Below the pieces are notes generated by a model. That model saw only the letters and a program-made list of their open reading frames with translations, was not told the origin of the DNA and ran no database searches. A DNA stretch of 64,000 nt from Alkalihalobacillus sp. CinArs1 (GTDB lineage Bacteria > Bacillota > Bacilli > Bacillales > Guptibacillaceae): NCBI RefSeq assembly GCF_947387515.1, contig NZ_CANDOB010000001.1, positions 620,001 to 684,000 on the forward strand. Reading direction: 5' to 3'. Made by a program: the position numbers and the translations under genes. This document shows, one piece after another, positions 17,044 through 61,370 of this stretch; position 1 is the first letter of the stretch; each line of letters opens with the position of its first letter.

Positions 17044-17844
17044 TTAATCTTCTTTTGGTTTATTTTTAGCAAGGATAAAGACAGGTTCTAATTTGCCATC
17101 TTCGTAAATGAAGGGTAGTCCAGTAACAGGTACTAGTCCATTTGAGAAGAAATGCATCGTTAGCTGTGCAAGTGCATCATAGCCACGTTCGTTCACAATA
17201 TCAGCAAAGATCAATACATCTTGATGAGGAATTGCTACGGCTAATTCCCCTTTTGCTTTAGATGCCATCTCCTCTAATAAAGATTGATTCAGCACTCGAC
17301 TCGCATCATAGCCATCATTGGTATTTAAAAAGTAGAAGGTGCACCCCGCCACTGTATCTGTTTTCATTTCAGTCGACAGACCTCGAACATTAAACCTCGA
17401 TACTTCTTGAAGCGTTTCTTTGGTCATGCCCTCTTTCTCCAGCCAATTCTTGTCGATTAAGCGGTACGATTTACCAAGGTCGAGGGCATAGTAGATCCTT
17501 GTTTCTCCAGTGTGCTCATCGAAAACGAGCGGTACACCAGATTCAGTTTCTGAAGGAAATGAACCAGATCGAATAACAGGGAAGATGTTGCTTTCGCTTC
17601 CGCTTAGTTCCTGGTTATCATTCATCGCTTTCAACGTTTCTTCAACATGATGCACGATTTCATCAAGAAGGGATTCTTTACGTTCTTCATATTTTGCAGC
17701 AAGTCCTTTTAAAGAGAGACTCATCCCTTTTCCTGAACACTTTGTTTCGATTCGAAGCTTCTCTTCTTTCTTATTATATGTAAGTTCACGGTCTTCACTT
17801 TGCAGCCGTTCTTCTAACAGTTTTCGCAAATCTTTCGGTTCCAT
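17044..17844 (-). CDS. ytpQ: YtpQ, DUF1444 family protein
   Basis: A 266-residue soluble protein of unknown function found across Bacilli. I chose the ATG at 17842-17844 because GGGTGGTGA lies just before it and the product then starts MEPKDLRKLLEERL, close to the usual family length; an upstream ATG at 17868 lacks a good ribosome site. The middle has FPVIRSGSFPSE and VPLVFDEHTGETRIYYALDLG, typical of the family. It is preceded by an unassigned structured RNA or leader (17908-18165). Confidence 0.88.
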   Translation of the reverse strand: MEPKDLRKLLEERLQSEDRELTYNKKEEKLRIETKCSGKGMSLSLKGLAAKYEERKESLLDEIVHHVEETLKAMNDNQELSGSESNIFPVIRSGSFPSETESGVPLVFDEHTGETRIYYALDLGKSYRLIDKNWLEKEGMTKETLQEVSRFNVRGLSTEMKTDTVAGCTFYFLNTNDGYDASRVLNQSLLEEMASKAKGELAVAIPHQDVLIFADIVNERGYDALAQLTMHFFSNGLVPVTGLPFIYEDGKLEPVFILAKNKPKED

Positions 17845-17907
17845 TTTTTCACCACCCTGTACATTCAATTAGAGTTGTCACTTTATGATACCATGAAAGT
17901 TCTATAG

Positions 17908-18165
17908 ACAAAAACAAAGCTATGTTAGACATAGCTCAGGTTGTTAATGACCTTAAAATGTTGTACTCCCTATAACGGAGGAGTTTGGATCCCTCATACT
18001 TTCCTATGGACACACGCCCGTTGGACCACGGTAGTCAAGAGGGACCCACTCCTACTAGCATACTTCAAACCAACTTTCCGACCTACAATGCTTACGAATA
18101 TTTACGCTCATGTTGATTTATTCTTCATTCGTAAGACTTTATCAACAGCCTGAAGCTAAGTTAGA
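17908..18165 (-). ncRNA. Unassigned structured RNA or attenuating leader between ytpP and ytpQ
   Basis: No protein gene fits this 309-base gap, but the minus strand folds well by eye. A closing stem pairs 18141-18156 with 17934-17948 (about 14 pairs). A 9-bp hairpin cttacgaat/attcgtaag joins 18127-18135 and 18091-18099. A central arm pairs 18039-18052 with 17980-17995 (ggagtgggtccctc with gagggatcc...ctcc). The 3' end is a strong intrinsic terminator (17908-17936; stem agctatg/catagct plus T-run). The closing stem and terminator share bases around 17933-17936, so they compete. I do not recognise a T-box, SAM, TPP, FMN, lysine, cobalamin, M-box, 6S or SRP signature. It could be a free RNA or a riboswitch for ytpQ. 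Confidence 0.55.
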
Positions 18166-18177
18166 CATTTGTTTTTC

Positions 18178-18492
18178 TTATTTAACACTTGATAAAAAGT
18201 CTTCGATTTCTTCACGTGTTTTTCTATTCTTGCTTACAAAACGTCCAGTCTCTTCTCCTTCGTTGAATGCAACAAAGCTTGGGATTCCAAAAACATTTAA
18301 TTCCTGACAAAGTTCAATATGTTGATCTCTGTCTACATAGTAGAAAGTCAGTTCCTTATACTCTTGTTCCAGTTCTGGTAGAAATGGCTCGATTACGCGG
18401 CAATCGGGGCACCAATCTGCTGAGAATAAAAAGACAGATTTCCCTTCGTTCATCGCTTGGACGTAGTCTTCGTGCTTATCAAAAGTTTTCAT
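18178..18492 (-). CDS. ytpP: Thioredoxin-like protein YtpP
   Basis: A 104-residue cytoplasmic thioredoxin-fold protein with the redox motif WCPDC (residues 27-31) and a cis-proline in GIPSFV near residue 75. It likely reduces disulfides or bacillithiol mixed disulfides; targets are unknown. CPDC is unlike the CGPC of housekeeping TrxA, which suggests a distinct partner. An AGGAGG-like site precedes the start. It is followed by the structured RNA region and ytpQ. Confidence 0.9.
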   Translation of the reverse strand: MKTFDKHEDYVQAMNEGKSVFLFSADWCPDCRVIEPFLPELEQEYKELTFYYVDRDQHIELCQELNVFGIPSFVAFNEGEETGRFVSKNRKTREEIEDFLSSVK

Positions 18493-29746: not shown

Positions 29747-30076
29747 AACACGGACCAAATATGTCCGTGTTAGAGTGTAGAGAAAGTCTCGGTGTTGCGA
29801 TGAGAGTAGACGACCATCTCCGTTTCAATTAACGTTACTCGTCTGTTAAACCATTGGGCGGAAGATTCGTTTTTGATTAAATCTCATCAAGTAGGAGAGA
29901 CGATCGCGGACTCCTGCGGTCGTACGGACGGCCGAGACCGGGGTGTGGGTTTCACCTCGGGCTTGGACGTTCGTCCGCGGAAAGCATGCGATCGTCATCG
30001 ACTACGGCATAGGGAGCACACCGATTAATGACATAGGTTTCTCAACAAGCTTACACGGACCAAATATGTCCGTGTT
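29747..30076. repeat. Structured intergenic repeat flanked by 24-bp direct repeats
   Basis: A hairpin of the form acacggacc...gtccgtgtt occurs at 29748-29771 and again, identical over 24 bases, at 30053-30076. Between them are about 280 bp. The inner half pairs with itself: gacgatcgc (29899-29907 region) with gcgatcgtc (near 29988-29996), and a block from cggactcctgcgg to gtccgcggaaagc that resembles a GC-rich repeat common between genes of Bacilli. The element ends carry gagaaa near 29780 and tttctc near 30038, an imperfect terminal inverted repeat. No open reading frame of note is inside. It looks like a small non-coding mobile or structured-RNA element. Confidence 0.6.
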
Positions 30077-50354: not shown

Positions 50355-50625
50355 AATAAAAAACCTCCCATCCCTGTCTATAAACAGGGACGAGAGGTTG
50401 AGAATCTGTTATTCACAATCACCCGCGGTACCACCCGGATTAGTGCTGAATCGCACTCACTTAAAACCTTTAACGCAGGCGGACGGGGCTCCCTACTATC
50501 TTTCAGGATTCCAATTCAAAGGCGAGTTCATAAAGTTTCTATGTTAACTTTCACCACCCGTTAACTCTCTTAAAGTAGAAGCTTTATTACTATTCCTCAT
50601 CATAATCTTTCAGTTTAATCTCAGT
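50355..50625 (-). promoter_or_regulatory. T-box riboswitch of leuS, leucine specifier CUC
   Basis: The minus strand carries the conserved T-box GGGTGGTACCGCG (50424-50436), which pairs with the NCCA end of uncharged tRNA. The specifier loop reads GAACTCGCC, giving the leucine codon CTC (50524-50526). A terminator follows (stem 50362-50376 with 50384-50399, then T-run). When tRNA-Leu is uncharged, antitermination raises leuS expression. Confidence 0.95.
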
Positions 50626-61196: not shown

Positions 61197-61370
61197 AATA
61201 AAAAAGCCCTTTCCTTCATCATAAAGGGAAAGGAGCTGAAGTCTCTTGCCTTTCGCCTCTTATCTTCCAAGACAATAAGTCTTGCAGGTTAGCACCTTAA
61301 TCCACTATATGAGGAGTTGGTTGCTGAGCTTCATAGGGCCTGTCCCTCCGCTTACTCGGGATAAGAGTAT
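61197..61370 (-). promoter_or_regulatory. SAM-I riboswitch (S-box) of metK
   Basis: The minus strand has the S-box core: CTCTTATCCCGAG at the 5' end (near 61357-61367), GGAGGGACAGGCCCTATGAAGC, then CAGCAACC, GGTGCTAA, and the closing GATAAGAG (61257-61264), which pairs with the first element. The expression platform ends in a terminator (agctcctttcc / ggaaagggct, 61205-61236) with a T-run. High S-adenosylmethionine would stop transcription. Confidence 0.95.

What the first reader, a model, noticed from the sequence alone, without database searches (positions are those of the whole stretch)
17908..18165. Candidate new structured RNA or riboswitch between ytpP and ytpQ
Seen directly: on the minus strand, three independent helices (closing stem, 9-bp hairpin, long central arm) plus a strong terminator fill the gap, with no protein gene. 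The 15-base segments at the two ends, agctaagttagacat (18154-18168 region) and agctatgttagacat (17918-17932), differ at one base, so the 5' end can replace one arm of the terminator. That gives mutually exclusive closing stem and terminator, the layout of an attenuator that would be ON when the aptamer folds. Inference: a regulator of ytpQ, or a free RNA.
Basis: partly seen in the sequence, partly recalled or inferred. Interest (0 to 1): 0.72.

Follow-up and report, generated by a model that had tools for sequence, protein, structure and literature searches.

The report
Mobile element inside a duplicated terminator
The supposed riboswitch is an old, non-coding jumping element that landed in a gene's stop-transcription hairpin and duplicated that hairpin; the one conserved structured piece inside it belongs to a large, apparently uncatalogued repeat family in Bacilli.

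Summary
The structures are real, but they are not a ytpQ regulator. The segment is one of many dispersed copies: 15 other places in this genome match at E about 0.001 or better. Of 14 ytpP-ytpQ loci from relatives, only one has the module in the gap; the 7 closest of the rest show one plain terminator.

It is a 216-bp MITE (17937-18152) between two copies of the ytpP terminator. The 15-base 'end repeats' that suggested an attenuator are a target-site duplication of that terminator. Of 45 copies tested, 31 show such a duplication. A fresher copy at 29772-30052 has a perfect 24-bp one. In Alkalihalobacillus algicola an IS1182-family element has similar ends and an exact 31-bp duplicated terminator. 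This fits a stem-loop-duplicating pathway that Wan et al. 2017 drew as a possibility; their IS1272 replaces its target instead.

The central hairpin belongs to a covarying module with no Rfam match at gathering scores. It occurs in 43 of 200 sampled Bacilli genomes, in at least three kinds of mobile element. That module is the open question.

The parts
17937..18152 (-). MITE body (216 bp), in the orientation of ytpP and ytpQ
   Evidence: Copies across the genome and boundaries set by terminal inverted repeats and flanking duplication
18135..18152 (-). Left terminal inverted repeat CAGGCTGTTGATAAAGTC, 3 edits from the consensus CAGATTGTTGAGAAAGTC
17937..17952 (-). Right terminal inverted repeat GGTCATTAACAACCTG, 6 edits from GGTTTCTCTACAAACTG (degenerate)
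17975..18056 (-). Structured module (domain B core, short form without the inner hairpin)
   Evidence: Match to model R2, 76.4 bits (this copy was in the training set); not found by the domain A model
18153..18168 (-). T1: decayed upstream copy of the ytpP terminator (ATGTCTAACTTAGCTT)
   Evidence: Direct repeat of T2; no hairpin predicted
17907..17936 (-). T2: downstream terminator copy, hairpin AGCTATGTCTAACATAGCT plus T-rich tail
   Evidence: -9.7 kcal/mol; the uninserted relatives have a single such terminator
18091..18135 (-).
   Evidence: ORF
   Evidence: ORF; relatives found with it
29772..30052 (+). Second, better preserved MITE in the same window (281 bp), module core 29890-30007
29748..29771 (+). 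Upstream copy of its 24-bp duplicated terminator ACACGGACCAAATATGTCCGTGTT
30053..30076 (+). Downstream identical copy, followed by a T run

Best explanation
The gap holds a decayed, non-autonomous DNA transposon (MITE) that inserted into the rho-independent terminator of ytpP. A transposase of the IS1182 kind most likely recognised the palindromic terminator as a hairpin or cruciform and joined the element's ends at the feet of the stem-loop; repair then duplicated the whole hairpin. The downstream copy still looks like a terminator and the redundant upstream copy decayed. Inside sits one copy of a structured module that many mobile elements of Bacilli carry. Shown: dispersal, uninserted sites, inverted repeats, terminator duplications, and an IS1182-family element with similar ends and an exact terminator duplication in a related species. 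Inferred: that this transposase family moved this copy, the strand-transfer chemistry, and near-neutrality for ytpQ.
For: Dispersed copies. Only 1 of 14 related loci has the module in the gap; single terminators in the 7 closest others. Own left/right flanks match far better than mismatched ones (33 copies; 31 of 45 copies at or above the 99th percentile); of those 31, 29 have a predicted stem of at least 6 bp and 24 a T or A run at the outer side (counted). Well-kept ends CAGATTGTTGAGAAAGTC ... GTTTCTCTACAAACTG. Perfect 24-bp duplication at 29748/30053. IS1182-family pieces in G003 with similar ends and an exact 31-bp terminator duplication.
Against: No IS1182-family transposase was found in the own genome (0 matches; 11 contigs, so possibly incomplete). 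The G003 transposase copies are cut by contig ends, so its two ends and the 31-bp duplication are joined only by inference. The window copy's right inverted repeat is degenerate (6 edits). 14 of 45 copies show no clear duplication. The end motif is only modestly enriched in the own genome (22 sites vs 14 for the reversed control).
Confidence: 0.87

Rival explanations
1. Cis-acting riboswitch or attenuator of ytpQ that is ON when the aptamer folds.
For: Stable fold; alternative pairing between the end segments; covarying central arm.
Against: Absent from the gap in 13 of 14 related loci; present at many unrelated gene ends; opposite orientation at the one other occupied gap; no Rfam match.
Confidence: 0.02
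2. Terminator-targeting MITE as in the best explanation, but moved by a transposase other than IS1182.
For: No IS1182-family gene was found in the own genome; the G003 copies are partial; the ends of the own-genome copies (for example AGAGTGTAGAGAAAGTC) differ somewhat from the G003 IS ends.
Against: The IS1182-family element of G003 has similar ends and the same kind of target duplication.
Confidence: 0.15
3. Free regulatory small RNA from this locus, with mobility only historical: the module acts in trans or stabilises the ytpP mRNA.
For: Strand-biased variants and covariation in the module family.
Against: This copy's core is the short form, diverged, and is not matched by the domain A model; no conservation at the locus. 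Transcription not tested.
Confidence: 0.08

Closest known systems
IS1272 / TnSha1 (IS1182 family): Wan et al. 2017 PMC5678879 (abstract, one results section and the first part of the discussion read) and Furi et al. 2016 PMC4923244 (passages seen)
   Same: Same transposase family as the element in G003; targets stem-loops without sequence preference, many of them transcription terminators, in either orientation.
   Different: IS1272 removes the target hairpin and makes no duplication; here the hairpin is duplicated, as in a pathway Wan et al. drew as a possibility. The finding is a MITE, not an IS.
IS1182-partnered MITEs of Methanosarcina acetivorans (ISMac2), PMC3852290 (one passage of a table seen)
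   Same: Short non-autonomous elements (160 and 169 bp) assigned to an IS1182-family partner.
   Different: The last two columns, sizes of direct and inverted repeats whose order I did not see, read 26/4 and 25/0; I take the small ones for direct repeats, so no terminator duplication is indicated. Sequences were not compared.
Bhal-1 and other stem-loop repeat families, Petrillo et al. 2008 PMC2267715 (passages seen)
   Same: Intergenic structured repeats in Bacillus; could overlap with the module.
   Different: Their sequences were not seen, so identity is untested.
Riboswitch / T-box type leaders
   Same: Structured non-coding segment ending in a terminator.
   Different: Lies at a 3' end of a gene, not conserved at the locus, dispersed and mobile.

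Membership tests
MITE | Several dispersed, non-coding, short copies | tested here: met
   15 other places at E about 0.001 or better; element lengths 220-502 between duplications
MITE | Terminal inverted repeats | tested here: met
   Clear in well-kept copies; 3 and 6 edits from consensus in the window copy
MITE | Target-site duplication | tested here: met
   31 of 45 copies; window copy 15 of 16 bases
MITE | Uninserted site in relatives | tested here: met
IS1182-mobilised element | Ends shared with an IS1182-family IS | tested here: met
   Similar by eye to the G003 IS ends; no statistical comparison made
IS1182-mobilised element | IS makes the same kind of target duplication | tested here: met
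   Exact 31-bp terminator hairpin at two contig ends
IS1182-mobilised element | Transposase present in the same genome | tested here: not met
   0 matches in G000; draft of 11 contigs, and a source could be lost
IS1182-mobilised element | Mobilisation in trans | not testable with these tools
   Needs an assay
IS1272-type stem-loop replacement | Target hairpin removed, no duplication | tested here: not met
   Hairpin duplicated
Riboswitch or attenuator | Fold conserved upstream of the same gene in relatives | tested here: not met
Riboswitch or attenuator | Match to a described family | tested here: not met
Riboswitch or attenuator | Ligand-dependent switching | not testable with these tools
   Needs probing
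Structured RNA family (module) | Covariation beyond controls | tested here: met
   17 of 33 and 10 of 23 pairs with changes on both sides; 0 of 500 shuffles reach them; relatedness is not removed by that control
Structured RNA family (module) | Transcription | not testable with these tools
   No expression data held

The most novel reading that the evidence does not exclude
The roughly 80-130-nt hairpin module is an uncatalogued functional structured RNA (or single-stranded DNA) cassette of Bacilli that has been captured by at least three unrelated kinds of mobile element: terminator-duplicating IS1182-type MITEs, MITEs with GGCTCT ends and 8-bp duplications, and an IS701-type element. It would give them a shared benefit, such as insulating or stabilising the host transcripts they land in.
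Probability: 0.3. Interest if true: 0.72.

Novelty: new variant of a known kind. Interest (0 to 1): 0.42.

Why it matters
It explains an attractive 'new riboswitch' as a mobile element and shows how a duplicated terminator plus inverted repeats imitates attenuator anatomy, a trap for RNA discovery. It gives genomic evidence in the IS1182 family for the stem-loop-duplicating outcome that was drawn as one possible pathway for IS1272. It also points to a structured module common in Bacilli, without an Rfam match, whose presence in several unrelated carriers asks for a functional explanation that RNA-seq can test.

Tried and rejected
Rfam scans of the window at gathering score and of 17700-18400 at E <= 10 gave only chance-level matches here. 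Plasmid and phage collections gave no match to the segment. Group II intron, REP/RAYT, ribozyme and CRISPR-repeat ideas were considered from memory only and dropped, because ends and duplications fit a DDE transposon. I tried to decide from the terminator loops whether the opposite orientations at ytpP and (probably) rpmB in the two species reflect inversion or independent insertion; the loops are too short to tell (by eye). An ISL3-family transposase behind the GGCTCT-ended MITEs was looked for in 8 genomes: matches in 2 of them, none over the cut-off, so that label would rest on recall and I do not use it. Searching one flank of the A. algicola IS in 3 relatives for an uninserted site found nothing. 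A query of paper texts with six module strings returned 4 papers, judged irrelevant from titles and abstract openings.

Full report
What was claimed.

Is it there? Yes. The sequence and helices are as described. The fold beats all 200 shuffles on both strands, z -2.5 on the minus and -3.7 on the plus strand, so strand assignment does not follow from stability. Rfam gives nothing here at gathering score and only chance-level matches at E <= 10.

It is a dispersed repeat. Searching the own genome with the segment gives, besides itself, 16 rows at E about 0.001 or better, at 15 places (two rows are parts of one copy), 73-88% identical. A fuller copy (L029) gives 35 rows at E <= 0.1. Part of it, query 60-186 (domain A), abounds elsewhere: 30 of 41 genomes, the own one included, match L029 at E <= 0.001. 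The part that matches the window element (domain B) is strong in the own genome and in G003, whose contig C1 has the same length (1416233) as the A. algicola AmN0-13 contig of L009.

The locus itself. Fourteen related loci were fetched. In the 7 Pseudalkalibacillus-group loci L010-L015 and L020 the gap, read by eye, holds one ordinary terminator, for example AACAAAGCTATGCTCAGCGTAGCTTTGTTTTT in L011. In A. algicola (L009) a larger copy sits at the same terminator in the opposite orientation. Searches of all 14 loci with models of both module types find the module in the gap of L009 only; L020 has one copy outside the gap, and the 6 more distant loci have none at E <= 1.

Anatomy. Well-kept copies in G003 read: terminator hairpin | CAGATTGTTGAGAAAGTC ... 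GTTTCTCTACAAACTG | the same hairpin plus, usually, a T run. In the window the body is 17937-18152, the upstream hairpin copy is the decayed ATGTCTAACTTAGCTT (18153-18168), and the downstream copy is 17907-17936. I aligned the left flank region of each copy with its own right flank region and with those of all others. Of 36 copies fetched by then, 33 were used (dropped: L034, truncated; L086 and L087, domain A only): own-pair mean 14.0 against 8.2 (sd 1.4); 14 copies beat all 64 of their mismatched pairings, and the window copy is equalled or beaten by 1 of 64. With 12 further copies (L109-L112, L114-L119, L128 and the second window copy; L113 left out as the same place as L082, L120-L127 not used) 45 copies give 16.1 against 8.5 (sd 1.4); 31 of 45 reach the 99th percentile of mismatched pairs and 14 do not. 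Of the 31, 29 have a predicted stem of at least 6 bp in the right copy, and 24 a run of at least 6 T of 8 after it or 6 A of 8 before the left copy.

A second copy in the window. At 29772-30052 a fresher element lies between two identical 24-bp hairpin sequences ACACGGACCAAATATGTCCGTGTT (29748-29771 and 30053-30076), the second followed by a T run. Related copies occur elsewhere in this genome (L109-L119).

What moves it. A search of 6 genomes for IS1182-family transposases (NF033551) found none in the own genome and four matches in G003, two over the cut-off, all at or near contig ends and partial. The longest piece scores 316.6 bits (cut-off 270) and carries DUF772 and DDE_Tnp_1 domains. Its ends, CAGGTTGTCGAGAAAGTC and GGTTCCTCTACA(A/G)GCTG, resemble the MITE ends (by eye). 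Two contig ends of G003, which look like the two sides of one insertion, share exactly 31 bp, AAGGCAAGTCCTCAAAGTGAGGGCTTGCCTT, a complete terminator hairpin. A search with an end motif, one mismatch allowed, finds 22 sites in G000 (reversed control 14) and 57 in G003 (control 19): clear enrichment in G003, modest in G000. A search for an uninserted site of that IS in 3 genomes found nothing. Two nested copies, L069 and L112, carry a host terminator between an ordinary element and a small element made of ends only (by eye), as expected if outer ends of two neighbours transpose together.

Literature. IS1272, of the same family, targets stem-loops and terminators but removes them and makes no duplication (PMC5678879: outline, abstract, one results section and first part of the discussion; PMC4923244: passages). 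Wan et al. draw a pathway in which joining at the 5' foot duplicates the whole stem-loop; the pattern here matches it. MITEs assigned to an IS1182 partner are listed for Methanosarcina acetivorans (PMC3852290: one table passage). A review of prokaryotic MITEs (PMC10969869: passages) notes SPRITE and BOX elements and that MITE transcripts can form terminators or riboswitch-like structures; the passages do not mention Bacillus. Ten searches of the open-licence library, most judged from listings, showed no description of whole-terminator duplication by IS1182-type MITEs; ISfinder was not available, and I recall that it lists long or palindromic repeats for this family.

The structured module. Domain B (30 copies) and domain A (26 copies) fold into long hairpins: 10 of 23 and 17 of 33 pairs have changes on both sides. 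No shuffle of 500 reaches these values and slid versions stay far below, though relatedness of copies inflates such numbers. Variant pairs are G.T in 31 cells and A.C in 9, or 24 and 9 distinct pair events, which suggests selection on one strand's fold; cells are not independent. The domain A model finds 14 domain B cores in 18 sources at E <= 10 (best 6.6e-14 and 3e-8), but not four others, the window copy among them; the reverse search gives weak support (best E 0.002). A and B therefore look homologous; full elements carry them in opposite orientations. The B model matches 17 of 61 genomes at E <= 0.001. The A model matches 43 of 200 genomes of the class (21 of 95 genera) at E <= 1e-5, with at most 17 candidates scored per genome. 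Rfam gathering scans of 10 loci gave a T-box and an L20 leader, not the module.

Carriers. Of 18 domain-A loci checked, 7 have GGCTCT-like ends on both sides, and 6 of these have an 8-bp duplication with 7 or 8 bases identical (4 of them exact); among 113 mismatched pairings only one reaches that. An IS of about 1.83 kb, 99.7% identical at two places in G046, holds the module and pieces of an IS701-family transposase, each below the curated cut-off. So the module is not tied to one transposon family. Why is unknown.

Effect on ytpQ. The upstream terminator copy no longer forms a hairpin, and the downstream copy is predicted weaker (-9.7 kcal/mol) than the single terminator of L011 (-19.2). Some read-through into ytpQ is possible; ligand-controlled regulation is not supported.

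Verdict. The finding is a decayed MITE in a duplicated terminator. The riboswitch reading fails; the observation that something structured is there holds, and leads to a widespread module that deserves its own study.

Noticed in passing
window 29748-30076: A second, better preserved MITE with the same module, between two identical 24-bp terminator copies, at the end of a tiny ORF.
   Followed up: partly
window 50383-50612 and 61257-61367, minus strand: A T-box leader and a SAM riboswitch (Rfam); ordinary.
   Followed up: no
L069 and L112: Composite copies that carry a captured host terminator together with a small element made only of inverted ends (by eye).
   Followed up: partly
L038/L077 (ytpP) and L028/L070 (probably rpmB, named from recall): The two species carry copies at the same two terminators but in opposite orientations: inversion between palindromes or independent insertions.
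   Followed up: partly
L132 765-2595 (G046): An IS701-family-like element with a broken transposase gene carries the module near one end; at least two nearly identical copies.
   Followed up: partly
L043, L046, L050, L052, L056, L057: MITEs with GGCTCT-like ends and 8-bp duplications that carry domain A; their transposase was not identified.
   Followed up: partly
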